Below are positions 26,245-60,220 of a DNA stretch of 64,000 bases, piece by piece (positions within the stretch are counted from its first letter, which is position 1; every line of letters begins with the position of its first letter). The translations under genes and the position numbers were made by a program. The notes below the pieces were generated by a model. The model had not been told where the DNA came from. It saw only the letters and a program-made list of their open reading frames with translations, and ran no database searches. Source of the DNA: Terriglobia bacterium. GTDB taxonomy: Bacteria; Acidobacteriota; Terriglobia; Bryobacterales; Bryobacteraceae. The stretch is from NCBI GenBank assembly GCA_010084195.1, contig RGPS01000001.1:1-64000 (forward strand), in the 5' to 3' direction.

Positions 26245-26272
26245 TTAGTGTTCTTTGCTTAGTGTTCTTCGG
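26245..26272. repeat. Tandem duplication of the atpB 3' end (2 x 14 bp)
   Basis: Plus-strand units TTAGTGTTCTTTGC and TTAGTGTTCTTCGG share eleven identical leading bases. On the minus strand each unit reads AAGAACACTAA, so the atpB stop codon TAA is duplicated with its context. It lies immediately downstream of atpB and upstream of atpE. Confidence 0.85.
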
Positions 26273-26990
26273 CTACCGCGCCCGCCACGTAGATCATGGT
26301 CATAAGCACGAAGATGTAAGCCTGCAGAACGGAAACGAAAACGTGCAGCCCCATGAAGATGACGGGGGCCACGAGATAAGTCAAACTCAGGAACACCAGC
26401 GTCACCTGCTCACCGGCATACATGTTGGCGAACAGACGGATGGTGAGCGAGAGAGGGCGGGCAATGTGGCTGATGATTTCAATCGGAATCATCAGAGGGG
26501 CCAGAGCGGGGATGGGACCGAGGAAGTGCTTCAGGTAGTGCCCGGCATCTTTCTTCAGTCCGACGTAGTTGTAATAACCGAAGGTCACCAGGGCGCAACC
26601 GAGGGGAACGTAGATCGCCTGTGTCGGGCTCATGAAGCCGGGGATCAGGCCGATCAGATTTGCCAGCAGCAGGAAGATGAACATGGTTTCGAACAGCAGA
26701 ACGTGTTTGGGACCGTCATGCCCCACCTGTTCGTGCGAAGTGTCGCCGATGAAACCGTGGATCAGTTCAAAGAGATGCTGCAGGGTGCCGGGCTTCGTGA
26801 TGGAGAGGCGGCTCTTCAGAATCACAAGCAGGAGAATCATCAGAACTGCCACCAGGAGCTGCATCACCATGTGATCGGCCCAGGGTTCATTCGGGTTGCT
26901 GGCTGTCATGTGGAACAGGCCGAGAATTGTGTTGGCGACGCCGGCGAAGTGAGAATTAAAGAACTGCGCGAGCCAGGTTTCGTGAGTCAT
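26259..26990 (-). CDS. atpB: ATP synthase F0 subunit a
   Basis: Stator proton-channel subunit, 243 residues from ATG 26990 (MTHETWLAQFF), which overlaps the stop of the upstream gene in ATGA. Five to six membrane helices are present. The essential Arg is in SLTIRLFANMYAGE, and the preceding IPIEIISHIARPLSL block and terminal VLMTMIYVAGAVAEEH are typical. The track's extra 15 N-terminal residues come from antisense overlap. No b, delta, alpha, gamma, beta or epsilon genes follow. Confidence 0.95.
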   Translation of the reverse strand: MTHETWLAQFFNSHFAGVANTILGLFHMTASNPNEPWADHMVMQLLVAVLMILLLVILKSRLSITKPGTLQHLFELIHGFIGDTSHEQVGHDGPKHVLLFETMFIFLLLANLIGLIPGFMSPTQAIYVPLGCALVTFGYYNYVGLKKDAGHYLKHFLGPIPALAPLMIPIEIISHIARPLSLTIRLFANMYAGEQVTLVFLSLTYLVAPVIFMGLHVFVSVLQAYIFVLMTMIYVAGAVAEEH

Positions 26991-27367
26991 GTAATAAGTT
27001 CGTAGATGATTTCGAGGAGCGCCGCAGCCGGACAAAGGAAGAACCCTGCAAAGGCTGCCTGGGTGCTAAACCCCGAAAACTGCATTATAACAAAGACCCC
27101 TAAGATCAAGCCTGAGAACTGGATAAAGAGTCCGCCGGTACCTGATTTTGCGGGCTTTTCTTCACCCTCCACAGGCGTGGCCGTGACCCTTCGCGCGGCA
27201 CGTTCCACCAACTTCAGATTGACCCAGGCGGCGATGGCTCCCAGCAGAAAGCCGCCGGAAACGGAGACCCCGTAACGGAACAGCGTGTAAACGGTGCCGA
27301 GGGTTGCCAGCGTCAGCAGCCAGCGCGGCAGCCGTGCGATGGCGCGGTTGTAGTCAAATTCAGCCAC
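26987..27367 (-). CDS. ATP synthase subunit I-like membrane protein
   Basis: 126 residues with four hydrophobic segments: LLTLATLGTVYTLF, SGGFLLGAIAAWVNLKL, LFIQFSGLILGVFVIMQF and AAFAGFFLCPAAALLEIIYEL. Size, topology and the position directly before atpB match the ATP-synt_I (AtpI) family, which helps assemble the c-ring. A hydrophilic loop (ATPVEGEEKPAKSG) separates the two helix pairs. The ATGA overlap with atpB argues for translational coupling. Confidence 0.8.
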   Translation of the reverse strand: MAEFDYNRAIARLPRWLLTLATLGTVYTLFRYGVSVSGGFLLGAIAAWVNLKLVERAARRVTATPVEGEEKPAKSGTGGLFIQFSGLILGVFVIMQFSGFSTQAAFAGFFLCPAAALLEIIYELIT

Positions 27368-27368
27368 G

Positions 27369-27569
27369 TTACTTCTCGTTGTCCAGTTCCCGAATCAGGG
27401 AGATGAAGCCGGAGACGGTGCCGAGGCCCATAAACACCCAGCGGATCCAAACGGTGTGGAACAGGTGGTCAAGGCCGTAACCCATTGCCCAACCCACGAA
27501 GGTGGACACGGGCAGCAACGTCGCCAGCGAAATGTACTTACCGAGGTCGCGTTTGGTGGCTGGGTCCAA
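27369..27569 (-). CDS. atpZ: AtpZ/AtpI-family small membrane protein
   Basis: 66 residues, two membrane helices (ISLATLLPVSTFVGWAMGYGLDHLF; WVFMGLGTVSGFISLIREL) joined by a short loop, as in AtpZ proteins found at the start of F0 operons. One base separates its stop from the next start. It lies 2 nt after the aminotransferase stop, so the operon probably reads aminotransferase, atpZ, atpI-like, atpB, atpE. Confidence 0.83.
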   Translation of the reverse strand: MDPATKRDLGKYISLATLLPVSTFVGWAMGYGLDHLFHTVWIRWVFMGLGTVSGFISLIRELDNEK

Positions 27570-27571
27570 TA

Positions 27572-28750
27572 TCAGCCTCGCCCGAGCCTGGCGAGTCTTT
27601 CGCCAGCGGCCTGCAGCGTTTCGAATTTCTTGCAGAAGCAGAAGCGGAGCTGATTCGCTCCGAGTTCCGGGCGCGAGTAGAAACTGGAGCCTGGGACTGC
27701 GGCCACGCCGATATTCTCGACCAGGTGGCGCGCGAACGCTACGTCATTCTTCGCGCCGAAAGCCGAGATGTCAGTCATCACGTAATACGCGCCATGGGGA
27801 TTGAAGCAGCGGAAGCCGGCACCTTCCAGCATAGAAATCGCTGCTGTCCGGCGACCGCTGTACTCGGCGGAGAGGCCGTTGAAGTAGTCATCGTGCTGGT
27901 CGAGGGCCATCACGCCGGCCTGCTGGAGGGGTGTTGCCGCTCCCACTGTGAGGAAGTCGTGCACTTTGCGGATGGAATTGGTCAGGTCTGGAGAAGCGAG
28001 AACCCAGCCCACCCGCCAGCCTGTCACGGAAAAGGTCTTGCTCATGCTGTTGATCAGAATGGACCGGTCGCGCATGCCGGGCAGCGTCATGATCGGGATG
28101 TGCTTTTCGCCGTCGAAAGTGATGTGTTCGTAGATTTCGTCGGTGATAGCGAGAGCGTCGAACTCCTGGCAAAGCTCGGCTATGAAGGTTAGTTCCTGAA
28201 GGTTAAAGACCTTGCCGGTGGGGTTGTTCGGGGTGTTGATGATGATGGCTTTGGTGCGTGGCGAGAAGGCGGCGCGCAATTCAGCGGGGTCGAAGGTCCA
28301 GTCCGGGGCATAGAGCGTGACCAGCTTACGCGTGGCCCCGCACAGCATCGTGTCGGGGTGGTAGTTCTCGTAGAAGGGTTCGAAGACGACCACTTCATCG
28401 CCGGGATCGCAGACGGCCAGCAGGGACGCGATCATGCCTTCGGTGGCTCCGCAGCAAACGGTGATTTCGGTTTGCGGATCTGCCGTCAGGTCGTAGGTGC
28501 GGGCGTACTTGCGGGCGATGGCATCGCGGAAAGGCTTTGTGCCCCAGGTGATTGGGTACTGGTTGTGGTCCGCGTTGATGGCGTCAATGGCAGCCTGTTT
28601 CAGGTCGAGAGGGGCGGCGAAGTCCGGGAACCCCTGCGCCAGATTGACGGCACCGTGGGCAACGGCCAGACGGCTCATTTCACGAATGACGGATTCGGTG
28701 AAATCAGCGGTTCTGGCACTGCGAAAGCTCTTCGCGGCTGCGGTGGACAT
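27572..28750 (-). CDS. PLP-dependent aminotransferase, class I/II (kynurenine/methionine aminotransferase-like)
   Basis: 392 residues from ATG 28750; the 68-residue upstream extension in the track has no support. Fold-type I motifs are YPITWGTKPFRDAIA, CCGATEGMIASLLA (PLP phosphate contact), IINTPNNPTGKVF, ITDEIYEHI, and the PLP Lys in SMSKTFSVTGWRVGW. A C-terminal Arg that would bind the substrate carboxylate is in QLRFCFCKK. It is close to YbdL/kynurenine-oxoglutarate transaminases. Its tight junction with atpZ suggests cotranscription with F0 genes, though a functional tie is not obvious. Confidence 0.9.
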   Translation of the reverse strand: MSTAAAKSFRSARTADFTESVIREMSRLAVAHGAVNLAQGFPDFAAPLDLKQAAIDAINADHNQYPITWGTKPFRDAIARKYARTYDLTADPQTEITVCCGATEGMIASLLAVCDPGDEVVVFEPFYENYHPDTMLCGATRKLVTLYAPDWTFDPAELRAAFSPRTKAIIINTPNNPTGKVFNLQELTFIAELCQEFDALAITDEIYEHITFDGEKHIPIMTLPGMRDRSILINSMSKTFSVTGWRVGWVLASPDLTNSIRKVHDFLTVGAATPLQQAGVMALDQHDDYFNGLSAEYSGRRTAAISMLEGAGFRCFNPHGAYYVMTDISAFGAKNDVAFARHLVENIGVAAVPGSSFYSRPELGANQLRFCFCKKFETLQAAGERLARLGRG

Positions 28751-28910
28751 ATAGGGGTATCGTCTCACACAGAAGAGTTGGGTCAGGCTGATAGTGCATA
28801 TCCTCTCTGAGTGTGGATATGGCTTACCGAAGTCTTCGTTCGTGCCCGATGCCGTTAAATGCCGGACATGCGGCAGCGTTCCGGTGATGCCCGCAGCACT
28901 TTCGCCCGGC

Positions 28911-29207
28911 TTACGCTTTGCGGGCTTTGAAGCCACACTTAGCGATGAAGTCAACCAGTTGTTTTTCGTTCGTCAGCCGACTGTCATAACCAACTTCCGC
29001 TGATTTTCCCGGGTAGCTGGCCGAGACGCGGACTACCCCTTTTTCCATTTTGAGAAGGGTTTCAAGCCCGACCGCGCACGTGATGCAGGTGTAGCCCTCC
29101 ACCGAGAACTTAACGGCAGCGGTTTCTTTCGGCGCGGCACCTTCCAGCGTCAGGCTTCCAGCAGGCATGGTGACGGCTATATCGCGGATGAAGTTCCTGC
29201 GATCCAT
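28911..29207 (-). CDS. Exported heavy-metal-associated (HMA/MerP-like) protein
   Basis: About 98 residues from ATG 29207 (MDRRNFIRDIAVTMPAG), a Tat-type RR signal; the track start (GTG 29237) lies inside the peptidase stop region. The HMA domain contains the CxxC metal site in FSVEGYTCITCAVGLETLL, followed by GVVRVSASYPGKSAEVGYD and a C-terminal helix (QLVDFIAKCGFKA). It resembles MerP or copper chaperones. The partner transporter is not in the window. It is the last gene of the Uma2-M20-HMA group. Confidence 0.82.
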   Translation of the reverse strand: MDRRNFIRDIAVTMPAGSLTLEGAAPKETAAVKFSVEGYTCITCAVGLETLLKMEKGVVRVSASYPGKSAEVGYDSRLTNEKQLVDFIAKCGFKARKA

Positions 29208-29226
29208 TTGAACATTATTGAAGCTT

Positions 29227-30345
29227 TTATTGGACACGGGATACGAGGGTGGCGAGCAGGGCCACCCGATCTGCCAGGCGGTTGGTCAGCAGGCTTTCGT
29301 GGGCCGCGTGTGCTCCTTCGCCAACCGCCCCCAGGCCATCCAGGGTCGGCACACCGAGCGCGGCGGTGAAGTTGCCGTCTGATCCGCCCCCGGTTGCCGA
29401 TTCAGTGACTTCAATGCCCATTTCACGACCTGCCTGCTGAGCAAGCCGAAGCAACTTCACGACACCCGCGCTGCGTTCCATGGGCGGCCGATTGATGCCT
29501 CCGGAAAGTTCCAGAGTACAGCGTTTGTCAATCGGTTTCAGGGCCCGGAATCGCTTATCGAGCCTTGCGGCGTCGATAATTCGGGGCGTTCTGGCGTCGA
29601 TATGCATTTCGGCCGCTTCCGCGATGACGTTGGAACGTGTGCCGCCGGAGATTGTCCCGGGGTTTACCGTAATCCCCCGCTTCAGATCGGTAAAGCCGGC
29701 GATGCGTTCGATCTGCCTGGATAGTTCGAGGATGGCGCTGGCCCCCTTCTCGAAGTCGACGCCGGAGTGCGACGCAATTCCCCTGACCCGTAATCGGTAA
29801 TCGCTAATACCCTTGCGGGCGGTTTTGAGTTTGCCTTCGAGGCCCGTGCCCGGCTCCAAAACGAGGACTGCTTTGCTGAGCAGAGCCTGTTTCTCGGTAA
29901 GCGCCCGGGAAGTCCGGCTGCCGGTTTCCTCATCTGAATTTACCTGCAGGACAACACGATGCGGGACCGCGATGTTGTGTTCCCGCAGCGCCTTCATCGC
30001 GAATACAAACATGGCGAGGCCTGCTTTCATGTCGAGGACCCCGGGACCCCAAAGACGGCCCCCATCGTGACGAAACGGCATGATCTGCAGGGTGCCGTTC
30101 GGCCAGACGGTGTCGCCATGTCCAAGGGCCAGGATCTGCCCTTCTTTTTTGCGACCAGGAAGCTTGAACTCGCAAAGCAGATGGGTGTCGACACGCTTGC
30201 ACTTTGCGTGGCCGCCGAGCGCATCGGCAAACAGGTCCATGAACCGCTTCAGGCCTTCGGGTGAATCGCTGGGCGATTCACAAACGACCAGTTCGCGGAT
30301 AAAGGAAATCAGTTCGGCTTCGTGAGCCCTGGCCCAGTTGATCAT
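29227..30345 (-). CDS. M20-family metallopeptidase (glutamate carboxypeptidase-like)
   Basis: 372 residues. Zinc-site blocks are visible: LALGHGDTVW (His/Asp), GPGVLDMKAGLAMF (bridging Asp), NSDEETGS (catalytic and metal Glu) and the C-terminal ESATGGGSDGNF with a further His in GAHAAHES. The dimerisation lid lies between (GIASHSGVDFEKGASAIL). The pattern is closest to carboxypeptidase G2-type enzymes that cleave C-terminal Glu or amino-acid conjugates. No signal peptide, so cytoplasmic. The start ATG overlaps the Uma2 stop in ATGA. Confidence 0.9.
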   Translation of the reverse strand: MINWARAHEAELISFIRELVVCESPSDSPEGLKRFMDLFADALGGHAKCKRVDTHLLCEFKLPGRKKEGQILALGHGDTVWPNGTLQIMPFRHDGGRLWGPGVLDMKAGLAMFVFAMKALREHNIAVPHRVVLQVNSDEETGSRTSRALTEKQALLSKAVLVLEPGTGLEGKLKTARKGISDYRLRVRGIASHSGVDFEKGASAILELSRQIERIAGFTDLKRGITVNPGTISGGTRSNVIAEAAEMHIDARTPRIIDAARLDKRFRALKPIDKRCTLELSGGINRPPMERSAGVVKLLRLAQQAGREMGIEVTESATGGGSDGNFTAALGVPTLDGLGAVGEGAHAAHESLLTNRLADRVALLATLVSRVQ

Positions 30346-30959
30346 TTTGGCGGAAAGGCGTATTGTGCCCGAAATTCGGCTTGCGGGGCGGCCAGTGGCG
30401 AAACCGGTTCCTGCTCCCGGTAAACGTGTATGGCGGTATATTCGCCGTCAGTGGGGTTTCGGTGGACGATCAGGCGGCGGGCGTTTACGTCCAGCACCCA
30501 AAAGTCCGCAATACCCGCCCGGGCGTAGAGTGCAGCCTTGGTTTTGAGATCCAGATAGAGCGTGGAATCGGAGACTTCGATAACCAGCCGGACATCCGAC
30601 GGACCAGGGTTTTTAGTCAGGAACTCCGTCATCGGCCGAGTCAGAACGATTAAATCGGGCTCGGGTTCGTTGGCTGTGTTGTCGTCGCCCGCGACATCTA
30701 TCGGGGCTTCCTGATGAACAAAGCCCGCTCCAAAAGCTTCGCGCAGCCATGAAAAGAGCAAGGCCACCGCAATGACGTGAGGACGATTCTTCCCCAGCTT
30801 GTTAATCAGTTCTCCATCAATGAGTTCCAAATGCTCACCGGCCAGCAGGCCACTGGCGTCCAGAGCTTCACACTGAGCCCTGGTCCAGCGCTTTCTTGCG
30901 GGTGCAATGGCAATTGTTTCGACCGGGCCATCAATCAACGGCATGAGCGTGGTGTCCAC
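30342..30959 (-). CDS. Uma2-family putative restriction endonuclease (DUF820)
   Basis: 205 residues; GTG start at 30959, or ATG at 30944. The PD-(D/E)XK-like core reads HLELIDGELINKLGKN, EPEPDLIVL and RLVIEVSDSTLYLDLKTKAALYARAGIADFWVLD, which gives the Asp, Glu and Lys residues expected in Uma2 proteins. The biological role of this widespread family is unsettled. It overlaps the M20 gene by 4 nt, so it is cotranscribed with a peptidase rather than with DNA-modification genes. Confidence 0.88.
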   Translation of the reverse strand: MDTTLMPLIDGPVETIAIAPARKRWTRAQCEALDASGLLAGEHLELIDGELINKLGKNRPHVIAVALLFSWLREAFGAGFVHQEAPIDVAGDDNTANEPEPDLIVLTRPMTEFLTKNPGPSDVRLVIEVSDSTLYLDLKTKAALYARAGIADFWVLDVNARRLIVHRNPTDGEYTAIHVYREQEPVSPLAAPQAEFRAQYAFPPK

Positions 30960-31030
30960 AAAATCATCATAGCGCCAAATGGCGAACAGGCGTCATCGCC
31001 TTGTGGGATGCCGAAGCGAGGATTTGGAGG

Positions 31031-31255
31031 CTATGACCGGAAAATGTAGCCGCGCCAGGCTCCACATCGGTCACATTTCACCAACGGGAGGAACCCGAGC
31101 ATTTTCGAGCGCCGCTTAGCCGGAAGTAACGGGGTCTGGCAGCGCCAGCAACCGCGACTAAAAATGATCTTGCCGACCCAATAGAGCGCCGTGGCCGCCA
31201 AAATCGCGACCAGCGCCGGCCAGCCAGCCCGCCAAATATCACCTAGGGATGCCAT
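31031..31255 (-). CDS. Small membrane protein with a zinc-ribbon-like CxxC pair
   Basis: 74 residues. One membrane helix (WPALVAILAATALYWVGKIIF) precedes two CxxC motifs (GCWRCQTP and KCDRCGAW) spaced by about 22 residues, as in a small cytoplasmic zinc ribbon. Such proteins appear widely as uncharacterised genes. It is last in the PQQ dehydrogenase, NadD-like, zinc-ribbon series, 25 nt after the NadD-like gene. Confidence 0.62.
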   Translation of the reverse strand: MASLGDIWRAGWPALVAILAATALYWVGKIIFSRGCWRCQTPLLPAKRRSKMLGFLPLVKCDRCGAWRGYIFRS

Positions 31256-31280
31256 TGTATTCCCGCGAAAGGAGATTTCA

Positions 31281-31946
31281 TTATACGTTCCCGCTCGAAA
31301 TTAGGGGCTTGTGCCGTTGCTCCGGTTCAGCAGACACCCCGGCGGAGTAGAGTCGGGCAACCTCCGGCACCAGAGTTTCCGGCACCAGATGTTGCCAGGC
31401 TTCCTTCATTTCCACACGGCGACGGACCTCGGAAGAGGACACATCATTGAAGTCCGCTTCCAGCTGGAGCGGGATGACGCGGCTTGCCAGGTGGCTCGCC
31501 GCCGTGTACTCACCTTGCCTCGATGCCACCAGCAGAGGATGAGCCGCCAGCATTTCCTCAAAGACTCCCGGCCGGCCGTAGTCCCAGGTGGCGATACGCT
31601 CCACCGCATCCCTGCCACAGATGACCCCGATTTCGACCTCCGGGCCGCAACTCACGGAAGCCTCCCGGGCCATCTCAATGTGTAGATTCGTTTCCGACAC
31701 TGCGGCGGAGAAGGCGTCGCAGGTTCGGGCCAGCTGGCGGAGCATTTCCTGACGCTGCTCAAAGCTGGCTCCGTCAAAGCTCTTGTGCGGGAAAGACTTC
31801 GGCAGGATCCAGATGACTTCGTCGGCCCACTGCAGCGAGGCCTGGGCAATCGCGACATGGGCAACCGTTGGCGGATTCCAGGCCCCAGGGAAGATGGCGA
31901 TCCGGGCGGGCTGCAAACTGGCGCGGTGAAGAAAATTCAAAGCCAT
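31281..31946 (-). CDS. NadD-like nucleotidyltransferase
   Basis: 221 residues of the HxGH nucleotidyltransferase fold: IAIFPGAWNPPTVAHVAIA supplies the (T/N)P-x-HxxH start, and NDVSSSEVRRRVEM supplies the second SSxxR nucleotide-binding motif. It resembles nicotinate-nucleotide adenylyltransferase but is divergent in the middle, so the substrate may differ. It starts 5 nt after the dehydrogenase stop. It is probably not the only NAD-synthesis enzyme of the cell. Confidence 0.8.
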   Translation of the reverse strand: MALNFLHRASLQPARIAIFPGAWNPPTVAHVAIAQASLQWADEVIWILPKSFPHKSFDGASFEQRQEMLRQLARTCDAFSAAVSETNLHIEMAREASVSCGPEVEIGVICGRDAVERIATWDYGRPGVFEEMLAAHPLLVASRQGEYTAASHLASRVIPLQLEADFNDVSSSEVRRRVEMKEAWQHLVPETLVPEVARLYSAGVSAEPEQRHKPLISSGNV

Positions 31947-31951
31947 TCCCG

Positions 31952-33760
31952 CTATTCGGGCCCAAACGCCAGGAGGACATTGCCGGGGATACCGCCGAAC
32001 GAGCCGTAACCGGACCCGGTGAACAGCATGCCACCGGCCACAACCGGCCCCCCTGCATCAAATGATCCGCCCACACCTTTCAGGCCGTTGACGGTGGCGA
32101 ACTCGTGTGTCGCATCGTAGTCCCAGATGATTGCACCGGTAGTGGCAGCGTAGGCCCGGATATGCCCATCCAGCGATCCGGACAGCACCGCTCCGGGCAC
32201 AGCGGTCACCGCTGCGGATTGCGCAGCCTTACATAAGGGCTTACCCTGACAGAACTCATTCGGCTTCTGCCAGATCCGCTCTCCATTGTTAACGTTCAGC
32301 GCGAAGAGTCCGCCCGTACTACCGGGAACCAACACATCGGACAGCGCTACGTACACCCGTTGCCCATCGCTCGCCGGGCCCCACTGAATTCCCCCGAGGG
32401 CGCCACCTTTCCCGACTCGTTCCTGCCACAGAATCTCGCCCTTGCGATCAGGGTCCACTGCGTGGATAACTCCCGATTTCTGCCCCAACAGCAGAGCACG
32501 GCGGCCCGAACTCAGTTTCACCAAAATGGCAGCGGCTCCGAAATCATGATCGGGACCTTCGGAGTCCGGGCAGTTGGCCTTCGTCGGCGAAACGCAGGTG
32601 GTGTTGAAGGCGTCACCCTTCGTGAACTGTTTCGACCAGACCAGGCGGCCATCCTTAGGGTCGAGGGCAAGGAGTGCGTCGCTGGTATCGGTGGTGGGGT
32701 CGGAGTAGTTGTCTCCGGTCGTTACGTAAAGCAGGTTCCGCTCCACATCAAAGGTGGGTGTTGCCCAGATGCCTGCGCCGGAGGGTCCCAGAACATCGAC
32801 ACCCCGCTTGCTCCTGGCACGAGGCGTGGGCGGTTCGGAGGTGGTCCAGGTTTTCCAGATCACGGCACCATCGGCTGGGTTGAGGGCCAGAACACTTCCC
32901 CGAAACGTACAGCAGACGTAACCAGGTTTCGCCGCTTCGGGTTCCTCACGTGAGGCTACGCCCAGATAGATGCGCCCGTTGTGCACCAGTGGCGTTGACG
33001 TGACCATGGCGAAGGGGCTGTCGTCCACCTTGCGGCTCCAGATTCTGGCACCCGTACCGGCATCGAGCGCTGTCACGTTACCGGCGACGTCGCCGGCCAG
33101 GACGAGCGTCGTGTTTGCTGTTTGGGCGATGGCCAGGCCGGAACGCACCTGAGCCGGGATCTTCGAGATCCAGTGGCTGCAACCCGTTCTGGCATCCAAC
33201 GAGTACACGCTCCCATCCGTGCCACCGACAAAAACGCGACCTTCCAGCACGACAGGCTGTGACCGCATGGCGGTAGCGTCCGGGATGGCAAACGCCCACT
33301 TAAGTTTCAGTTTGGGAATGTCAGCCGCAGCCAGGCCGCCCGCCTTCTGGAATCGCCAGTTCTCAGGGCCGCCGCCCCAACTTTCCCATTTGGCTCCCGT
33401 ACCCCGGGGAGACCAGCCTGGCTCGGCAGCACACTGGTTGGACCGTTTGCCGACCGTTGGTGCCGCTGGCGCAAGCCCCAGCCATGCCGCGACGGCAGTT
33501 CGTTCCGTCGCCGTAAGTCTCGCTCCCTGCGCCTGCATCACCCCTGAGTCCAAAGCCTGAACAATTTGTGCAGGGGTCCTTGTCTTTAGGCCTGCCATAT
33601 CGGGAATGCGGGCCCCGGGTCGCGCATTTTCGTGGCAGACTGCACAGTTCTGGCGGAAGACAATTGCGCCCGGCGGATCATCAACCGCCTGAAGCTTTGT
33701 CACGGAGAGGAGCGTCAGAGCAAGCCATTGCCAGCGTTGGATTTGAGCACGAGTACTCAT
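31952..33760 (-). CDS. Exported PQQ-type beta-propeller dehydrogenase with N-terminal cytochrome c
   Basis: About 602 residues from ATG 33760. A signal peptide (LALTLLSVTKLQA) is followed by a cytochrome c domain with CAVCH haem site and a Met candidate in IPDMAGL. An eight-bladed PQQ propeller follows with repeated W-motifs (GSVYSLDARTGCSHW, GNVTALDAGTGARIW, GSVLALNPADGAVIW, GLFALNVNNGERIW, GHIRAYAATTGAIIW). A cytochrome in front of the propeller matches polyvinyl-alcohol dehydrogenase-like quinohaemoproteins, but the substrate is open. It acts in the periplasm and passes electrons to the respiratory chain. Confidence 0.88.
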   Translation of the reverse strand: MSTRAQIQRWQWLALTLLSVTKLQAVDDPPGAIVFRQNCAVCHENARPGARIPDMAGLKTRTPAQIVQALDSGVMQAQGARLTATERTAVAAWLGLAPAAPTVGKRSNQCAAEPGWSPRGTGAKWESWGGGPENWRFQKAGGLAAADIPKLKLKWAFAIPDATAMRSQPVVLEGRVFVGGTDGSVYSLDARTGCSHWISKIPAQVRSGLAIAQTANTTLVLAGDVAGNVTALDAGTGARIWSRKVDDSPFAMVTSTPLVHNGRIYLGVASREEPEAAKPGYVCCTFRGSVLALNPADGAVIWKTWTTSEPPTPRARSKRGVDVLGPSGAGIWATPTFDVERNLLYVTTGDNYSDPTTDTSDALLALDPKDGRLVWSKQFTKGDAFNTTCVSPTKANCPDSEGPDHDFGAAAILVKLSSGRRALLLGQKSGVIHAVDPDRKGEILWQERVGKGGALGGIQWGPASDGQRVYVALSDVLVPGSTGGLFALNVNNGERIWQKPNEFCQGKPLCKAAQSAAVTAVPGAVLSGSLDGHIRAYAATTGAIIWDYDATHEFATVNGLKGVGGSFDAGGPVVAGGMLFTGSGYGSFGGIPGNVLLAFGPE

Positions 33761-33800
33761 ATTTGGAGCCAAGCGTACCACAGATCGTAAACTGATCTTA

Positions 33801-34688
33801 GTGGATCTGGTTACTATTGGGCCGCGCGCTCCATCCCGCCCAAATTGGCTTCGTGCTCCGGCACCGGTGGGCGATAATTACCGCGAACTGAAGCAGTTGA
33901 TCACCGACCTGAAGCTCCACACGGTCTGTGAGAGTGCAGCGTGTCCCAACATAGGGGAATGCTGGAATCGGCGGACCGCTACTTTCATGATTCTGGGGAA
34001 TGTCTGCACGCGCCGCTGTGGCTTTTGTGCGGTGCAAAAAGGTGCTCCCCTGCCGGTGGATCTGGATGAGCCCGAGCGAGTCGGTGAAGCTGTCTACCGC
34101 ATGGGCCTCAGTTATGCCGTGGTCACGAGCGTCAACCGGGATGACCGCAAGGATGGCGGCGCGGAGCTTTTCGCCTTAACGATAGAAGCGATTCGCCGCC
34201 GGGTTCCGGGATGCAAAGTGGAAGTTCTGGTTCCCGATTTCCAGGGGAATCGGGACGCCATGAAGATCGTGATGGATGCGAAGCCAGACGTTCTAAATCA
34301 CAATACCGAGACGGTTCCTAGACTTTACCGCCAGGTGCGCCTGGGTGCTCGCTATGAACGTTCGCTGGGCATGTTGCAGTATGCGAAGGAACTTGTGCCC
34401 TCGACGCCGGTTAAATCCGGCCTGATGTTGGGGTTGGGCGAATCGATGGATGAGGTTCGGGAAGTGATGGCGGACCTACAGAGACATCGAGTGGATATTC
34501 TGACGCTGGGCCAGTATCTGAGACCTTCGCCGAAGCATCTGCCCATCATTCGCTATGTTTCACCTGAGGAATTTGCTGAGTTGCGGCGCTTTGGTATGGG
34601 CCTGGGTTTTGCCCACGTGGAAGCTGGACCGCTGGTTCGCAGTTCGTATCACGCAGACGATTCCCACGCGTCGGCTTCCGTTCAGTAA
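33801..34688 (+). CDS. lipA: Lipoyl synthase
   Basis: Radical SAM enzyme inserting two sulfurs into octanoyl groups on lipoyl-dependent enzymes. Both Fe-S cluster motifs are seen: CESAACPNIGEC (auxiliary cluster) and CTRRCGFC (radical SAM). Further blocks are MGLSYAVVTSVNRDD, VLNHNTETVPRLY and the C-terminal VRSSYHAD. 295 residues, family length. GTG 33801 is the likely start. It is divergent from the PQQ dehydrogenase, with about 40 nt between the starts. The stop lies within a 16-bp tandem repeat. No lipB is adjacent. Confidence 0.97.
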   Translation: MDLVTIGPRAPSRPNWLRAPAPVGDNYRELKQLITDLKLHTVCESAACPNIGECWNRRTATFMILGNVCTRRCGFCAVQKGAPLPVDLDEPERVGEAVYRMGLSYAVVTSVNRDDRKDGGAELFALTIEAIRRRVPGCKVEVLVPDFQGNRDAMKIVMDAKPDVLNHNTETVPRLYRQVRLGARYERSLGMLQYAKELVPSTPVKSGLMLGLGESMDEVREVMADLQRHRVDILTLGQYLRPSPKHLPIIRYVSPEEFAELRRFGMGLGFAHVEAGPLVRSSYHADDSHASASVQ

Positions 34689-34722
34689 AGCTTCGGTTCA
34701 GCAAAGCTTCGGTTCAGTAAGC
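34676..34722. repeat. Tandem repeat at the lipA 3' end (3 x about 16 bp)
   Basis: Units are TTCCGTTCAGTAAAGC, TTCGGTTCAGCAAAGC and TTCGGTTCAGTAAGC. The lipA stop TAA lies in the first unit, and the following units repeat the stop context (CAGTAA or CAGCAA). The last unit runs into the hairpin. Confidence 0.85.
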
Positions 34723-34744
34723 TTTACGCGTCCAGCTTACTGAA
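34713..34744. terminator. Hairpin between convergent lipA and small gene
   Basis: Perfect 11-bp inverted repeat TTCAGTAAGCT / AGCTTACTGAA with a 10-nt loop. It lies between convergent genes and contains the TAA of the minus-strand gene, so it may act for both directions. There is no long T run, so it is only a probable terminator. Confidence 0.6.
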
Positions 34745-36584: not shown

Positions 36585-36597
36585 CGCGGCGTTCTAT

Positions 36598-36666
36598 TAA
36601 AAAAGCCGGGGCTCAGGCGGTAAAAAAGCCGGGGCTCAGGCGGTAAAAAAGCCGGGCCTCAGGCCG
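36598..36666. repeat. Triplicated 23-bp unit at the crp-like 3' end
   Basis: Two perfect units TAAAAAAGCCGGGGCTCAGGCGG and a third, slightly changed copy that contains the minus-strand gene's TGA. Read on the minus strand, each unit has GCCTGAG followed by CCCCGGC and six T. The stop codon and a weak terminator-like element are therefore repeated together. Confidence 0.92.
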
Positions 36667-38959: not shown

Positions 38960-39325
38960 TTGAGTCAGGTACAGAAGGCGCAACGATCAGCCGCCATCCC
39001 GTATCTTGCTAGTCATCATCCGGCTGTTCCTCATCCGGCTGTTCCTTATGCTGTTGCCCTCATGAAGCCCCAGTTGCCTTCCGGGGCCGGTCCATTTCTG
39101 ATGACGGGAAATTCAGCCAACGATGGCGGCGGTCTTGTCACCATTGTCCTGAATCCGCCGAACTCCGACATCCTGACTCCCGAACCCGCCACCGCCTGGC
39201 TCGTCGGGACCGCACTACTCGGGCTCTTCGTCGGCCGGTTCCGGTTTCGCGGGGAACTTCCCGAACAGCTCCAGGAAGTCGGCCGGCGTCAACTGTTCCG
39301 CCCGACGCTCCATACCCGGAATTGA
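38960..39325 (+). pseudogene. Remnant of a PEP-CTERM protein
   Basis: The ORF contains LTPEPATAWLVGTALLGLFVGRFRFR, a good PEP-CTERM tail (Pro-Glu-Pro, hydrophobic segment, Arg cluster). Only about 45 residues precede it in a plausible frame, and there is no signal peptide. In another frame just upstream (39003-39055) a hydrophobic run ILLVIIRLFLIRLFLMLLP reads like a signal sequence, partly made by the 15-bp duplication. The ORF then runs on through the antisense of rsmA. It is probably a deleted or frameshifted PEP-CTERM gene. Confidence 0.5.
39017..39046. repeat. Perfect 15-bp tandem duplication
   Basis: CATCCGGCTGTTCCT occurs twice in direct tandem. It lies in the remnant of the PEP-CTERM gene, in the frame with a hydrophobic signal-like stretch, and adds five residues in that frame. 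Confidence 0.9.
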
Positions 39326-39994: not shown

Positions 39995-40019
39995 TAAGTA
40001 TCCAGGGTTCCTGTGGTGA

Positions 40020-41417: not shown

Positions 41418-41443
41418 GAACGTTTTCAGCGCACGTTTTCAGG
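41418..41443. repeat. Tandem duplication at the radical SAM gene end (2 x 13 bp)
   Basis: GAACGTTTTCAGC and GCACGTTTTCAGG share a perfect ten-base core ACGTTTTCAG. On the minus strand the second copy, shifted by 13 bases (not a multiple of three), supplies the in-frame TGA stop. The duplication therefore appears to have fixed the protein end. Confidence 0.8.
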
Positions 41444-52115: not shown

Positions 52116-53417
52116 TTGAACCTGATACTACTTGCATTCGGGGCTGTGGCCCTTCTCCTGTTTCTGATTATTGTGATGAGGATGCATGCCTTCCTGGCGA
52201 TGCTGATCTCGGCTTTCGCCATGGGGCTGGCCGCCCACATGTCCCCGGCTGTAGTCCTGAAGTCGATCCAGGCCGGATTTGGGGATGCCTTGAGTTCCAT
52301 CACGGTGGTGCTGGGGCTGGGGGCCATGATCGGTGCCTATCTGGAACATTCCGGTGGAGGCAGGGCTTTGGCGGACTGGCTGATTGCGAAGTTCGGTCAG
52401 GAAAAGGCTGTCTGGGCGATCATGCTCGCGGGTTTCCTGGTGGGCTTGCCGATATTTTTTGAAGTCGGTTTCATCATCATGGTGCCGCTGGTTTACAGCC
52501 TGGCGAGGGAAGGGAAGAAGTCGCTGCTGGTCTATGGTCTGGCCGTCGCGGCGCCTTTGACGATTCTGCACTCGCTGGTTCCGCCTCACCCCGCACCTGC
52601 CGCCGCCGCGCAATTGCTGGGGATCGATTTTGGGGCCGCAATTCTCTACGGAACGCTGCTTTCTGTTCCGATGACGCTCATCAGCGGCATGTGGTACGGC
52701 CAGTGGATTGGTAAGCGCCTCAACGTGCCGCTGCCGGCCGCAGCGCTGGAGCTTCCTGTGGAACAGGGGGGGACTCCTCCGGCGGTATTCGGCGTAGCGC
52801 TGCTGCTTGTGTTGCCGGTGCTTCTGATTGGTTGTGGCACGATTTGGCCGAAGGTTCCGGCTATGGTGCTGATCGGGCATCCATTCTCAGCGCTGCTGAT
52901 TACCTTGCTGGCGTCGATGCTGTTGCTGGGCACGGCACGCGGGCTGTCGATGCAGAAGATTACCGATTTGGCAAATAAGGCCGTGGGCCCTACGGCGTCG
53001 CTGCTGCTGATTATGGGAGCGGGTGGCGGCCTGAAGCAGATCATCGTCGATTCCGGGGCCGGAGCGATGGCCGGAAAGATGATGGCCGAAGCGCATATTT
53101 CACCGCTTTGGGCTGCGTTCCTGATGGCTGCAGTTTTGCGTGTGGCGCAGGGGTCGGCGACGGTGTCGATCATTACGGCTGCGGGGATTATTGCGCCAAT
53201 TGTGAAGGGTATGCCGGGGCTTCGTCCGGAGCTGTTGTTCCTGGCGCTTTGTTGCGGCGGGACAGGACCGTCCCTGGTGAACGATGCCGGTTTCTGGATT
53301 GTGAACCAGTACTACGGCCTGACCGTTTCGCAGACCTTCAAGGCCTGGACCGGGATGAAGATGATTTCCGCCGTGGTAGGGTTCGGGATTGTGCTGCTGC
53401 TTGATGCGTTTCTGTAG
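52116..53417 (+). CDS. GntP-family gluconate:H+ symporter-like permease
   Basis: 433 residues from TTG 52116, which has AGAGG upstream; the track start TTG 52080 lies before the ribosome-binding site. About 12 helices. Family blocks: MRMHAFLAMLISAFAMGLAA, SSITVVLGLGAMIGAYLEHSGGGRALADWLI, FEVGFIIMVPLVYSLARE, LHSLVPPHPAPAAAA, and VAQGSATVSIITAAGIIAP. It would take up gluconate or related sugar acids. A DUF2891 gene follows 5 nt later. Confidence 0.93.
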   Translation: MNLILLAFGAVALLLFLIIVMRMHAFLAMLISAFAMGLAAHMSPAVVLKSIQAGFGDALSSITVVLGLGAMIGAYLEHSGGGRALADWLIAKFGQEKAVWAIMLAGFLVGLPIFFEVGFIIMVPLVYSLAREGKKSLLVYGLAVAAPLTILHSLVPPHPAPAAAAQLLGIDFGAAILYGTLLSVPMTLISGMWYGQWIGKRLNVPLPAAALELPVEQGGTPPAVFGVALLLVLPVLLIGCGTIWPKVPAMVLIGHPFSALLITLLASMLLLGTARGLSMQKITDLANKAVGPTASLLLIMGAGGGLKQIIVDSGAGAMAGKMMAEAHISPLWAAFLMAAVLRVAQGSATVSIITAAGIIAPIVKGMPGLRPELLFLALCCGGTGPSLVNDAGFWIVNQYYGLTVSQTFKAWTGMKMISAVVGFGIVLLLDAFL

Positions 53418-53422
53418 ACCGC

Positions 53423-54472
53423 ATGCGGCTACCTGCTGTAGTACTTCTGACGGCCCTGTCTTTGGCAGCACAGACTGGTTTTGATGCTAAACAGGCTGAT
53501 CGCTTCGCTCAATTCGCGCTCGATTGTGTTCACAAGCAGTATCCGAACAAGATTGCGCATTCGCTCAATTCCGATGCGGACGTGAAGCCGCCCCGGGAGC
53601 TGACTCCGGCGTTTTATGGGTGTTATGACTGGCATTCGTCGGTGCATGGACACTGGCTTCTGGTGCGGTCGCTTCGGCTGTTTCCGGGTGGGGCCTTTGC
53701 GCCTGCCGCGCGCGCCGCTTTGGGGCAGAGCCTGACACCCGGGAATATCGCGAGGGAAGTTGACTACCTGGTGGCCGAGGGTCGGAGTTCGTTCGAGCGT
53801 CCCTACGGGTTGGGCTGGCTGCTGCAGTTATCTGCGGAGTTGAAGGAATGGGATGATCCCGAGGCTCGTAAATGGCATGGAGCGCTGGAGCCTCTTGCGA
53901 AAGCCGCCGTGGCACGTGTTTCCGCGTGGCTTCCAAAGTTGCAGCACCCCGTACGCACCGGCGAGCATAACAACACGGCATTCGGTCTGGGCCTGATGCT
54001 GGACTACGCCCGAAGCAGCGGCGAAGCAGAATTCGGCAAGTTGTTGGCGGGCCGAGTCCGTGACTACTACCTGAAAGACCGCGCGTGTCCCATCACCTAT
54101 GAGCCTTCGGGCGAGGACTTTGTGTCACCCTGTCTGGCGGAAGCAGACGTGATGCGGCGGGTTTTGTCGAAGGCTGAGTTTGTGGTCTGGTTTCGTGCGT
54201 TCCTGCGGCACATACCGCTGGAGCCAACTCCGGTCTCGGACTTTAGCGATGGCAAGTTGGGCCACCTCGCCGGGCTGAATCTGAGCCGTGCCTGGATGCT
54301 GGAAGGCATCGTATCCGTGCTGGGTTCCGGCGGTGACAGAAGTCGAATGCTGGAACTTTCGGGACGGCTGCGAGCAACTGGTCTGGAGAGTATTCGCAGC
54401 GAGCAATACGAAGGTGGTCACTGGCTGGGTAGTTTTGCGGTTTACCTGGTTAGTGGTCGTGGGCTGAATTAG
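53423..54472 (+). CDS. Exported DUF2891-family protein
   Basis: 349 residues with signal MRLPAVVLLTALSLAAQ. Family features include an all-alpha barrel of the (alpha/alpha)6 kind: YGCYDWHSSVHGHWLL, RPYGLGWLLQLSAELKEW, RTGEHNNTAFGLGLMLDYAR, EPSGEDFVSPCLAEADVMRRVL and LNLSRAWMLEGI. The His/Asp/Glu pattern suggests glycoside-hydrolase-like chemistry, but no activity is established for the family. It is coupled to the GntP permease, so a role in sugar-acid or oligosaccharide use is plausible. Its end overlaps the convergent transglutaminase gene by 23 nt. Confidence 0.85.
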   Translation: MRLPAVVLLTALSLAAQTGFDAKQADRFAQFALDCVHKQYPNKIAHSLNSDADVKPPRELTPAFYGCYDWHSSVHGHWLLVRSLRLFPGGAFAPAARAALGQSLTPGNIAREVDYLVAEGRSSFERPYGLGWLLQLSAELKEWDDPEARKWHGALEPLAKAAVARVSAWLPKLQHPVRTGEHNNTAFGLGLMLDYARSSGEAEFGKLLAGRVRDYYLKDRACPITYEPSGEDFVSPCLAEADVMRRVLSKAEFVVWFRAFLRHIPLEPTPVSDFSDGKLGHLAGLNLSRAWMLEGIVSVLGSGGDRSRMLELSGRLRATGLESIRSEQYEGGHWLGSFAVYLVSGRGLN

Positions 54473-56522
54473 GCTGGTTCCAGGTTCGTAACATTCCGGC
54501 CAACTGCGCTATTGCCTTTGGATCTCTGCCGTAGCGGGCCTCATTATACGTACACGTGAACGCGACGACCCTTTGGTCGGCTATAGATGCGGCCAGTTCG
54601 GCCGGAGTTGCGGTGGGAGGCCTGCTGATCTTCGCTTTGCGGAGCATCAACTCGTAGAGCCGGGCTGCGTCGTGGCTGGAAGTTTGACCTGCGGCTACTT
54701 TGCGGAGCCAGAAGTAGTTGCGTACCGTGCTCCACAGCCAGCGGAGGTTCCATAGCAGCAGCCCCAGACCAGCGAGGCCGCAGATCCACGCCCAGTGCTC
54801 GCGGACGAAGTCGAGGGGATGGATTGCGGGGGCTGTCCGGGGCCCTTGTCGAGTGGTGCGGAGGAAACTTTCAAGGCGGGCTGCGAGCGTTGCCTGGTGG
54901 CCGAGGTCATAGGTCAGAACCCACTGCTGCCAGACTGAATCCGCTGCATCCAGATACATGTTCAGGCGGCTGAGGATACCGGATTCCTTTGCGAGCGTGG
55001 AAGGCGTGGGGTCGAAGGTCACCCAGCCCTGGTCTCCGAACCAGCCTTCTACCCAGGCGTGGGCGTCGGAAGCCCGGATCACATTCAGACCGGACACCGG
55101 ATTAAAATAGCCGCTTTGGAAGCCCGTCACCACGCGGGCCGGAATTCCCGAGGAGCGCAACATCACGGCCATGGCGGAGGCGAAGTACTCGCAGTAGCCC
55201 TTCTTGTCGATAAACAGAAAGCGGGAGAGTGGATCGCGGCCACGTAGAACCGGGGTTTCCAGGCTGTATTGGAAGTCCCGGCGAAGATGCGATTCGATGC
55301 GCCGGACGCGCTCCAGAGTGGTACCCTCGCCCCCCCATTCACGGGCAAGCGCGGGGATCCGGATATCGATTGGTGGCACAGCCAGATTGCGATTGCGCTC
55401 ACGGTCGGTGAGGGCTTCCGGGAGGGGTTGCGCCAGCAAGGACGAGACTTCGTAGTGTAGTGTGTCGTTGCCTGGGGGGACGGCCTGCCAGTTATTGCCG
55501 GAACGGCGTATCAGGCGCTGCGAGGGTGGTGCCTGGCCGGGCAGGGTGATGTATTCGGGAATGCCTGCAATGAAGAGCGTCCCGTTGGAAGAAGCAGTGG
55601 AATCCACACGATAGAGAAGCCTGCGGCCATCGCGACGCGAACGCTGGGTGCGGTCGGCAACTTCCGCCATGCCGTTGATGAAAGGAATCGGCTCCGGGGC
55701 CATAGGGGAGGGCTCAAACCAGCGACTTCCGTCAAAGCGACTGAGCGTGGCACCCCGCCATTTCATGTTGAGGGGCAGCGGCCGGCCATAGGTCTGGACG
55801 TGGATTACGGCGCGGTTGTCCTTGCTGATGGCCCCGAAAGTTCCGAGGTCGATCACGCTGGAGAAGCCTGTGAGACGGGCTGTGCCGGGGAAGAGAACGG
55901 CGGCGGCGCGCGCGGTTCGGGGCACGATGAGGAAGAAGACGCCGGTGATGAGCAGGACTCCAAGTACGGCGATACCGGCGATTCCCGCAAGTTTCCAGGG
56001 CAGGCCAGATGGCGGAGAGGCTACCAGCGTGGTTCGCAGGAGACCGCGGCGAACTTCACTGCTGGTGAAGACGGCAACGGCGAAGAAGAGGGCGAGGACG
56101 AGCCAGATCAGGAAGCTGGAGTGCCAGGAGAGCAGCGCAGCGGCCACGAGTTCCACGAAGGCCACGAGGCCGGTATAGGAGAGGTCCCTGTCGCTGCGCC
56201 CGGTCAGGATTTTCACGGCCGCGAGAAAGCAGACACCGTGGATGGTGGCGGTGAAGAAATCGCGGGAGATCCAGAGGAAATCGACGGGGTAGAAGAGGAC
56301 GTAGGCGAGGGCGGCCAGAGAGACAGCACGTTGGGGGATCTCGAATTTGAGCCAGCCGCACAGAACGCAGGTGCGGGCGAGGAGGGCCGCACAGGTAAAG
56401 GTGATGGTTGCGGCATCCAGTCGCCCGGTACCGGCAAGGGCGAAGAAGCCGGTGGCGACGAGACCCAGCAGGGCGAACTGGAAGTAGCGGTCGACGAAGC
56501 GGAGGACCGATGAGGGGGCCAC
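54450..56522 (-). CDS. TgpA-like membrane transglutaminase (DUF3488/DUF4129-type)
   Basis: 690 residues. Five to six N-terminal helices (1-210) precede a periplasmic transglutaminase domain with its triad: Cys in FIDKKGYCEYFASAMAVMLR, His in ASDAHAWVEGWFGDQ, Asp in VTFDPTPS. A further membrane helix follows (residues about 580-600, WAWICGLAGLGLLLWNLRW). A C-terminal cytoplasmic DUF4129-type tail ends the protein. In Pseudomonas TgpA is essential, but the role in acidobacteria is unknown. Here it is not followed by the usual MoxR/DUF58 partners. Confidence 0.9.
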   Translation of the reverse strand: MAPSSVLRFVDRYFQFALLGLVATGFFALAGTGRLDAATITFTCAALLARTCVLCGWLKFEIPQRAVSLAALAYVLFYPVDFLWISRDFFTATIHGVCFLAAVKILTGRSDRDLSYTGLVAFVELVAAALLSWHSSFLIWLVLALFFAVAVFTSSEVRRGLLRTTLVASPPSGLPWKLAGIAGIAVLGVLLITGVFFLIVPRTARAAAVLFPGTARLTGFSSVIDLGTFGAISKDNRAVIHVQTYGRPLPLNMKWRGATLSRFDGSRWFEPSPMAPEPIPFINGMAEVADRTQRSRRDGRRLLYRVDSTASSNGTLFIAGIPEYITLPGQAPPSQRLIRRSGNNWQAVPPGNDTLHYEVSSLLAQPLPEALTDRERNRNLAVPPIDIRIPALAREWGGEGTTLERVRRIESHLRRDFQYSLETPVLRGRDPLSRFLFIDKKGYCEYFASAMAVMLRSSGIPARVVTGFQSGYFNPVSGLNVIRASDAHAWVEGWFGDQGWVTFDPTPSTLAKESGILSRLNMYLDAADSVWQQWVLTYDLGHQATLAARLESFLRTTRQGPRTAPAIHPLDFVREHWAWICGLAGLGLLLWNLRWLWSTVRNYFWLRKVAAGQTSSHDAARLYELMLRKAKISRPPTATPAELAASIADQRVVAFTCTYNEARYGRDPKAIAQLAGMLRTWNQPNSAHDH

Positions 56523-56576
56523 AGGTTCAGTTTAGCCTTTTGCGAAACGACCACAACGTTTCCGGAGAGGTGAAGT

Positions 56577-57383
56577 GTGCGGTTCTGCATTCTTTTTCTG
56601 ACTTGCCTGCGTTTGGTTGGTCAGACCGGACTTCAATTTGAGGTTGCCTCCATCAAGCCCTCCGGACCGCGGAGTGAGCGTGGGTCCGATGGCGGACCGG
56701 GCAGCCACGATCCCATTCGCTATGTTTTTGGAAGGGCGACCTTGAAGGATCTGATTCTGCCACCGTGGAATTCTGCAGGACTTTCAGGTATCCAGTGCGG
56801 AGTCACTGGAGCGTACAGCGTTTGATGTGAACGCCAGAATTCCTCCGGGTGCGACGAAGGACGATTTCCGGAGCATGTTGCAGCATTTGCTGCGTGATCG
56901 ATTTCAGATGGTTGTACATCGGGAGACGCGGGAGTTTTCCGGTTATGTTCTGGTGAAGACCGGGGCTGCGGGATTGCGGTTTCAGCCGTGGGAGCCTGGT
57001 TCCCTGGCTCCTCCCGCCCAGGACGGATGGCCCGAGCTCCCAGGTGGGCGGTCAGGGCTGGTGCAGCAAAACAGACTTAGTGAGGGTTACGGCGTGGGTC
57101 GGTTGCGAGGCTGGCGACAGCCAATGTCGGCCCTCGTCAAGATGATGAACATGGCCACACAAAGCCCCGTCGTTGACCGAACGGGCTTGAGCGGATTCTT
57201 CAATTTCTCGCTTGAATACACTATGGAGCGGTCAGGTATTCCGCCCGATGTGGGCGCTGAACTGCCCGGGCCACCCTCGGTGTTCGACGCGATTCAACGG
57301 CAACTGGGGTTGAAGTTGAGTGCCGCCAAGGTACCGTTCCCGGTGGTTGTGGTGGACTCGTTCAGCAAAACTCCGAGCGAAAA

Positions 57384-57387
<4 letters not shown>
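56577..57387 (+). pseudogene. TIGR03435-family exported protein, frameshifted near 56758-56767
   Basis: From GTG 56577 (GGAGAGG upstream) the first frame encodes a signal peptide and the family block FEVASIKPSGPRSERG and RATLKDLIL. It then leaves the family and stops at 56825. In the next frame, from about 56767, GILQDFQVSSAESLERTAFDVNARIP continues perfectly with the remaining domain (DDFRSMLQHLLRDRFQMVVHRETREFSGYVLV), and TGLSGFFNFSLEY to the stop at 57387. A net shift of one base in CTGCCACCGTGG explains the break. The family is a hallmark of Solibacter-type acidobacteria; its function is unknown. Confidence 0.85.
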
Positions 57388-59201
<1,814 letters not shown>

Positions 59202-59270
59202 GCGGTAAGATGGGGCTGAACTTCGATTGTCCCATATGTCTCGATTCAGGGAAGTTATTCATTTTTGTTC

Positions 59271-59756
59271 ATGAGCATCCAACAGCGTATTTTCGAAGGT
59301 GAACTCTCGGCAACCGGACTCCGGTTGGCCATTGTGGTGAGCCGTTTTAACAGTTTCATCACAGATCGCCTGCTTGCCGGCGCATTAGATGCAATCCAGC
59401 GTTCGGGGGGCGAGGCTGCGGAAGTCGACATTGTGCGGATACCCGGCGCATGGGAGTTCCCCATCACGGTGCGGGCACTGACGTCGTCGAAAAAACATGA
59501 TGCGATCGTGTGTCTCGGGGCCGTGATTAAGGGCGACACGCCTCACTTTGACTATGTGGCGGGCGAGGCTGCGGGCGGTATCGGAGCTGCTGCTGTGGAT
59601 TCCGGGATCCCGGTTGCTTTTGGTGTGCTGACCACGAATACGCTGGAGCAGGCAATTGACCGTGCCGGAGCGAAGTCCGGCAACAAGGGGTTTGACGCGG
59701 CTATGACTGCTATCGAGATGGCCAACCTGCTGAAAAAATTGCGAGCTGAGGTTTAA
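59271..59756 (+). CDS. ribH: 6,7-dimethyl-8-ribityllumazine synthase
   Basis: Penultimate step of riboflavin synthesis, joining 5-amino-6-ribitylaminouracil with dihydroxybutanone phosphate. 161 residues from ATG 59271. Motifs: [52 protein letters not shown] (catalytic His in PHFD), [20 protein letters not shown] and [17 protein letters not shown]. Its stop overlaps the nusB ATG (TAATGG), the common ribH-nusB operon order. Confidence 0.97.
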
Positions 59757-60199
59757 TGGCCCGTCATCGCGCACGGCAGCAAGCGTTGCAAATGATGTTT
59801 CAGTGGGACGTTCGTCGCACCCCGCCTGAGGAGATTGTGGGAGGGTACTACGGTTCCCTGCTGATCAGCGATGACGAAGAAGCAACGCCACCGCGCGATG
59901 AGTTTGCCGAAGAACTGTTTCGCGGGGTTCTGGCGGATTTGGCGGGGATCGATGAGCGCATCACTCGTCATGCTGCGCATTGGAAGATTGGGCGCATGCC
60001 CGTGGTGGATCGGAATATCCTGCGCATTGCTGTGTACGAGATTCTGACGACGGATACACCTGCAGCGGTGATTATTGATGAAGCGCTGGAGCTGGCGAAG
60101 CGTTTTTCGTCGGATGATTCGGCGCAGTTTGTAAATGGCGTGCTGGACGCGGTTCGGCGGGAAAAAGTGACGTCCGGCATCGAACTGAAGCCCGACTAA
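59756..60199 (+). CDS. nusB: Transcription antitermination factor NusB
   Basis: 147 residues. RNA-binding antitermination and rRNA-processing factor. N-terminal RHRARQQALQMMFQWDVRR and the C-terminal PVVDRNILRIAVYEIL and PAAVIIDEALELAKRFSSDDSAQFVNGVLDAV blocks are diagnostic. Overlaps ribH. The end is duplicated in 11-bp steps across the stop codon. Confidence 0.97.
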   Translation: MARHRARQQALQMMFQWDVRRTPPEEIVGGYYGSLLISDDEEATPPRDEFAEELFRGVLADLAGIDERITRHAAHWKIGRMPVVDRNILRIAVYEILTTDTPAAVIIDEALELAKRFSSDDSAQFVNGVLDAVRREKVTSGIELKPD

Positions 60200-60220
60200 G
60201 GCCGGACCAAGGCAGGACCA
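60188..60220. repeat. Tandem 11-bp repeat across the nusB stop (3 units)
   Basis: Units AAGCCCGACTA, AGGCCGGACCA, AGGCAGGACCA. The nusB ending Lys-Pro-Asp-stop lies in the first unit, and the two later copies are decayed versions. The 11-bp period is about one DNA turn. Confidence 0.75.

What the first reader, a model, noticed from the sequence alone, without database searches (positions are those of the whole stretch)
26245..60220. Recurrent tandem duplications of gene 3' ends spanning the stop codon
At least five unrelated genes end in short direct repeats that contain or abut the stop codon: atpB (26245-26272, 14 bp x2), lipA (34676-34722, 16 bp x3), the crp-like gene (36598-36666, 23 bp x3), the radical SAM gene (41418-41443, 13 bp x2) and nusB (60188-60220, 11 bp x3). 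Repeats inside coding regions are not seen at this rate. In the crp-like case the unit joins stop, GC element and T run, so the terminator is copied with the stop. In the radical SAM case the duplicated unit supplies the stop. This could be a mutational habit linked to termination or replication pausing at gene ends, or a selected back-up stop.
Basis: partly seen in the sequence, partly recalled or inferred. Interest (0 to 1): 0.72.

Follow-up and report, generated by a model that had tools for sequence, protein, structure and literature searches.

The report
Short tandem duplications at gene ends
In this acidobacterium and its sister species, stretches of about 15 DNA letters are repeatedly copied in tandem just at and after the ends of genes, most likely because copying slips everywhere but only copies placed there leave proteins unharmed; it is a real genus-wide pattern, but probably not a new stop-signal device.

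Summary
The five repeats exist. Two are strong (crp-like 23 bp x2.9; lipA 16 bp x2.75); three are short but still beyond shuffles (1-2 per 1000 each). A sixth, perfect 15 bp x2 repeat at 39016-39046 was missed. I scanned 2.5 Mb of this genome and congeners with an own gene caller. Tandem arrays have 0.55 loci/kb within 60 nt after a stop, 0.16 near starts, 0.13 elsewhere between genes and 0.025 in genes. They straddle 11 of 637 stops but 1 of 905 starts. Shuffled ends give about none. E. coli, Firmicutes and another Bryobacterales family give 1 of 492 ends, against 23 of 637 here. Units peak at 15-16 nt. Orthologous ends in sister species lack these copies; some carry different ones of their own. 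The stop lies in the first copy in 20 of 23, so the protein stays intact. Best reading: a general slippage-type process, filtered by selection, with the 3' flank as the permissive spot. Extra formation at gene ends is not excluded. A back-up stop is not supported. The closest known case is the tandem repeats of archaeal Borg elements.

The parts
26245..26269 (-). atpB 3' end: AAGAACACTAA copied once at 14 nt spacing, stop in first copy; part of a 27-nt insertion relative to the G015 orthologue
34674..34717 (+). lipA (lipoyl synthase) 3' end: 16-nt unit x2.75 (x3.2 in TRF limits 34674-34724), stop in first copy
36598..36664 (-). Crp-like regulator 3' end: 23-nt unit (GCCTGAG..CCGGCTTTTTTACC) x2.9, stop TGA in first copy; convergent gap with the 35118-36584 gene
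39016..39046 (.).
41420..41442 (-). Radical SAM gene 3' end: CTGAAAACGT repeated at 13 nt; the in-frame TGA is the one in the second copy
60190..60224 (+). nusB 3' end: 11-nt unit x3, imperfect, stop in first copy

Best explanation
A general mutational process in this genus makes short tandem duplications with a step of about 15 nt (13-18), most likely strand slippage or misalignment during DNA synthesis. It works in coding and noncoding DNA alike. Selection then removes most of them from genes, unless in frame, and from promoter and ribosome-binding regions. A duplication that covers a stop codon or lies just after it is silent for the protein, because the first copy still ends the gene. Such duplications therefore persist, sometimes grow to 3-6 copies, and later decay. 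Shown: the enrichment, its positions, the unit size, lineage specificity, and the stop lying in the first copy. Inferred: slippage as the source, and selection rather than local formation as the cause of the 3'-end bias.
For: Array density follows constraint in broad order: post-stop 0.55, pre-start 0.16, other intergenic 0.13, CDS 0.025 per kb; convergent gaps 0.48, co-directional 0.34, divergent 0.12 per kb. Arrays straddle 11 of 637 stops but 1 of 905 starts, p=4e-4. The working stop is in the first copy in 20 of 23 straddling arrays. Array starts are as frequent in the period just before the stop's end as just after it (8 and 8) and almost absent further into the gene. CDS arrays show the same favourite step: 15 nt is 18 of 53, all multiples of 3. 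Orthologous ends in 11-15 congeners lack the G000 copies; G009 lipA, G006 and G002 crp-like, and G016 and G005 radical SAM have different ones of their own. The atpB copy is a 27-nt insertion against G015. Perfect two-copy arrays have 2 or more extra matching bases in 18 of 25 cases, more than chance extension would give, which fits misalignment at short repeats. MutS is present in 30 of 31 genomes, so plain loss of mismatch repair is not the reason; loops longer than about 3 nt are reported to be repaired poorly by that pathway (PMC4060949).
Against: Intergenic DNA far from both starts and stops should be as tolerant as the post-stop stretch, yet holds 4.2 times fewer arrays (p=0.001). In convergent gaps coverage drops from about 4% within 40 nt to under 1% beyond 60 nt. 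These could come from missed genes or functional elements in long gaps, or from a real formation bias. The extra-match test is weakened because degenerate third copies look like microhomology.
Confidence: 0.58

Rival explanations
1. Formation bias: duplications arise preferentially at gene ends because transcription termination, R-loops, or replication forks meeting stalled RNA polymerase provoke slippage there.
For: Post-stop density exceeds that of far intergenic DNA 4.2-fold; coverage decays with distance from stops in convergent gaps; straddling of stops is 16 times the odds of straddling starts.
Against: Inside a given gap arrays are not nearer the stop than random placement (p=0.40 convergent, 0.58 co-directional). 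Array starts do not peak on the stop (8 before, 8 after). The same 15-nt step is seen in coding DNA.
Confidence: 0.27
2. Staggered double-strand-break fill-in joined by NHEJ (Ku/LigD) makes the duplications.
For: Ku is found in 18 of 19 genomes of the genus and is missing from most of the other family, including G022, which shows no arrays; small tandem duplications at breaks are known in eukaryotes (PMC8355091, found).
Against: G002 (98% complete) has no Ku hit yet carries arrays at gene ends in L015, L195 and L290. Extra matching bases at the junctions fit misalignment better than blunt joining.
Confidence: 0.08
3. Selected back-up stop or multiplied terminator: the copies guard against readthrough or strengthen termination.
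For: Stop-straddling copies often carry another stop triplet; 8 of 15 straddling arrays have a period divisible by 3; the crp-like unit includes a T run, and its first copy scores as terminator-like.
Against: Not conserved among orthologues and different in sequence each time. Periods of 16, 17, 23, 14 and 13 put later stops out of frame. Extra crp-like units fold no better than shuffles (z about -0.4 to -0.6). Many arrays lie wholly after the stop.
Confidence: 0.05
4. Chance or assembly artefact.
For: The atpB, radical SAM and nusB repeats are short and were picked by eye; the genome is a 628-contig draft; at a permissive TRF cut-off the contrast with Firmicutes is small (0.30-0.49 against 0.23 per kb noncoding).
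Against: Shuffled gene ends give about 0 arrays at the stricter cut-off. Copies differ by substitutions and mostly total under 100 bp, shorter than a typical read (an inference). The pattern recurs in independently assembled congeners.
Confidence: 0.02

Closest known systems
Tandem repeats of archaeal Borg elements (PMC9879509)
   Same: Independent, sequence-unrelated, fast-evolving short arrays, between genes or with the first unit within or partly within a gene end; units in ORFs divisible by three; lineage-specific burden.
   Different: Borg arrays are perfect, denser, A-biased, and sit on extrachromosomal elements of archaea. Here they are mostly 2-3 copies, often decayed, on a bacterial chromosome, with a step near 15 nt; A bias not tested.
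Close direct repeats enriched in prokaryotic intergenic DNA (PMC4060949)
   Same: Pairs of 10-mers within 50 nt are often over-represented between genes and normal within genes.
   Different: That survey did not separate gene ends from starts, as far as read here. The present arrays are true tandems with a preferred step and a 3'-end bias.
VNTR / minisatellite-like loci made by replication slippage
   Same: Head-to-tail short units with copy-number growth and decay.
   Different: Copy-number variation within a species could not be tested; most arrays have only 2-3 copies.
Tandem (back-up) stop codons and tandem terminators
   Same: A second stop triplet or T run follows the gene.
   Different: Not in frame as a rule, not conserved, no terminator fold in the extra copies.

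Membership tests
Borg-type tandem repeats | Intergenic, or first unit partly within a gene end | tested here: met
   20 of 23 stop-straddling arrays have the stop in the first unit
Borg-type tandem repeats | Perfect units without substitutions | tested here: not met
   Many arrays are 84-98% identical
Borg-type tandem repeats | Carried on a Borg extrachromosomal element | tested here: not met
   Window carries core chromosomal genes lipA, nusB, atpB, lepA
Slippage-type minisatellite arrays | Head-to-tail units absent from close relatives at the same site | tested here: met
   Orthologous ends lack them; 27-nt insertion at atpB against G015
Slippage-type minisatellite arrays | Copy-number variation within a species | not testable with these tools
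   No second strain of the species was available
Slippage-type minisatellite arrays | Short homology at unit borders | tested here: inconclusive
   Extra match of 2 or more in 18 of 25 perfect two-copy arrays, but third partial copies confound it
Back-up stop codons | Second stop in frame | tested here: not met
   Period divisible by 3 in only 8 of 15 straddling arrays, with 15 nt the general favourite anyway
Back-up stop codons | Conservation across orthologues | tested here: not met
   0-2 of 11-15 congeners have any array at each of the five ends, and with other sequences
Tandem intrinsic terminators (crp-like gene) | Each unit folds as a GC hairpin before the T run | tested here: not met
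   Only the gene-proximal unit scores; later unit -4 kcal/mol, z -0.43

The most novel reading that the evidence does not exclude
In this genus short duplications with a fixed step of about 15 nt are actively formed at transcript ends, by slippage tied to termination or to fork-RNA polymerase encounters, so that gene 3' ends are mutational hotspots that keep growing by about 15-nt units.
Probability: 0.25. Interest if true: 0.7.

Novelty: new variant of a known kind. Interest (0 to 1): 0.42.

Why it matters
Gene ends are where new C-terminal tails, terminators and gene-to-gene spacing evolve. A lineage that keeps copying about 15 nt there shows where tandem duplications survive in a bacterial chromosome, gives a natural record of a slippage process with a preferred step, and makes it testable whether gene ends are only tolerant or are true mutational hotspots. 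It also shows that a pattern described in archaeal Borgs has a milder counterpart in an ordinary bacterial genus.

Tried and rejected
A targeting model with the stop codon as preferred site: rejected for lack of a peak on the stop and flat within-gap placement. Back-up stop: see rivals. NHEJ: weakened by G002. Loss of MutS: not seen. A no-microhomology impression from reading the list by eye was overturned by counting. A first orthologue table was partly wrong because minus-strand matches were not turned; one search replaces it. Coverage values overflowed; one search replaces them. Named Bryobacterales contigs around lepA gave few arrays (2 of 124 ends), too few to say whether the burden stops at the genus. 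Literature searches for gene-end tandem repeats in bacteria found nothing closer than the Borg paper and the intergenic direct-repeat survey.

Full report
What was checked. TRF independently reports lipA, crp-like and nusB, and a sixth array, 39016-39046, two perfect copies of 15 nt in a convergent gap. Pfam confirms LipA, a cNMP-binding/Crp_2 regulator, radical SAM, NusB, ATP synthase subunit a, and LepA nearby. Per-end shuffles give 1, 0, 0, 2 and 1 in 1000 for atpB, lipA, crp-like, radical SAM and nusB. The two strong cases stand alone; the three weak ones are individually modest but jointly unlikely.

Scale. The window lies in a 6.5 Mb, 628-contig genome with 18 congeners at hand and other families of the order. 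I collected 1.44 Mb of this genome, 0.6 Mb of congener G006, 0.48 Mb of short loci from the other congeners chosen by protein homology only, 0.2 Mb of G022 (another family), 0.46 Mb of named Bryobacterales, 0.74 Mb of Firmicutes and 0.25 Mb of E. coli K-12. Genes were called with a home-made hexamer model: on one annotated 50-kb E. coli stretch it recovered 41 of 47 annotated stops with one extra. Tandem arrays were found by self-comparison at lags 7-60 with a score cut-off at which shuffled gene ends give none.

Result in the genus. Arrays per kb: 0.55 in noncoding DNA within 60 nt after a stop, 0.16 within 60 nt before a start, 0.13 in other short-gap noncoding DNA, 0.025 in coding DNA. Post-stop against far intergenic: ratio 4.2, p=0.001; against pre-start: 3.5, p=0.0006. 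Ends followed by at least 60 nt of noncoding DNA carry an array in 23 of 637 cases (starts: 15 of 905, p=0.019; at the stricter cut-off 17 against 8, p=0.0075). Arrays straddle 11 stops and 1 start. Firmicutes, E. coli and G022 together: 1 of 492 ends. Other Bryobacterales: 2 of 124, not clearly different. The direction is the same in each of the four genus subsets. At a permissive TRF cut-off the difference from Firmicutes shrinks, so the claim rests on the stricter arrays.

Anatomy. Noncoding arrays have units of 13-18 nt in 41 of 63 cases, with 15 nt (18) and 16 nt (8) most frequent; in coding DNA all periods are multiples of 3, with 15 nt again first (18 of 53). Units are unrelated in sequence. 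In 20 of 23 stop-straddling arrays the working stop is in the first copy, so the protein is unchanged. The radical SAM case is an exception seen by reading: its period of 13 brings the TGA of the second copy into frame. Array starts fall equally in the last period before and the first period after the stop's end (8 and 8) and then thin out: 3, 2, 1.

Evolution. Of 61 orthologous ends of the five genes in congeners, five carry an array, all different from those in the window. Against G015, whose AtpB is 94% identical, the window has a clean 27-nt insertion at the atpB stop that contains the copy. The arrays are therefore young and recurrent.

Mechanism. The broad order of densities, the stop in the first copy and the frame rule in genes are what a genome-wide slippage process plus purifying selection predicts. 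Convergent gaps hold more than divergent ones (0.48 against 0.12 per kb, p=0.011). Within a gap, arrays are not nearer the stop than random placement. Against a pure tolerance model stands the low density in far intergenic DNA and the decay with distance in convergent gaps; missed genes and unknown elements in long gaps may explain this, or a formation bias may exist. Mismatch-repair loss is not the cause. Ku is nearly universal in the genus and rare in the other family, but G002 lacks a Ku hit and has arrays. The preferred 15-16 nt step is unexplained.

Function. The crp-like array does not multiply a terminator: only the first unit looks terminator-like and the later units fold as shuffles do. 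No sign of a selected back-up stop was found.

Known context. [quoted passage not shown] A survey of prokaryotes reports close direct repeats over-represented between genes and notes that mismatch repair handles loops of 1-3 nt far better than longer ones (PMC4060949). The present case resembles the Borg arrays in anatomy but fails perfection and location, so it is not filed as one.

Verdict.

Noticed in passing
window 26177-26219, minus strand (between atpB and the next atp gene): A block of about 43 nt (GTGAGGCCTCCCGCCCCCAGGCGAGGAACGCAACCACCTCCGG) is nearly invariant downstream of atpB in most of the 12 congeners compared, while the DNA around it diverges. No Rfam match even at E up to 5; no exact hit in viral contigs; its 3' 18-mer occurs in the fetched loci only at this site.
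   Followed up: partly
   Followed up: yes
L145 17244-17363 (congener G006): A 57-nt unit x2.1 that straddles the stops of both convergent genes and itself contains a shorter internal repeat.
   Followed up: no
genus loci, coding DNA: Coding arrays also favour 15 nt (5 amino acids), including eight perfect runs of three or more 15-nt copies.
   Followed up: no
congener genomes G006, G007, G009, G011, G013: Two or three Ku-domain hits per genome in several congeners.
   Followed up: no
L200 against L153: L200 (named MAG Kiruna2_bin-3869) gives the same alignment figures over part of the nusB-lepA region as congener G015, so G015 is probably that genome.
   Followed up: no
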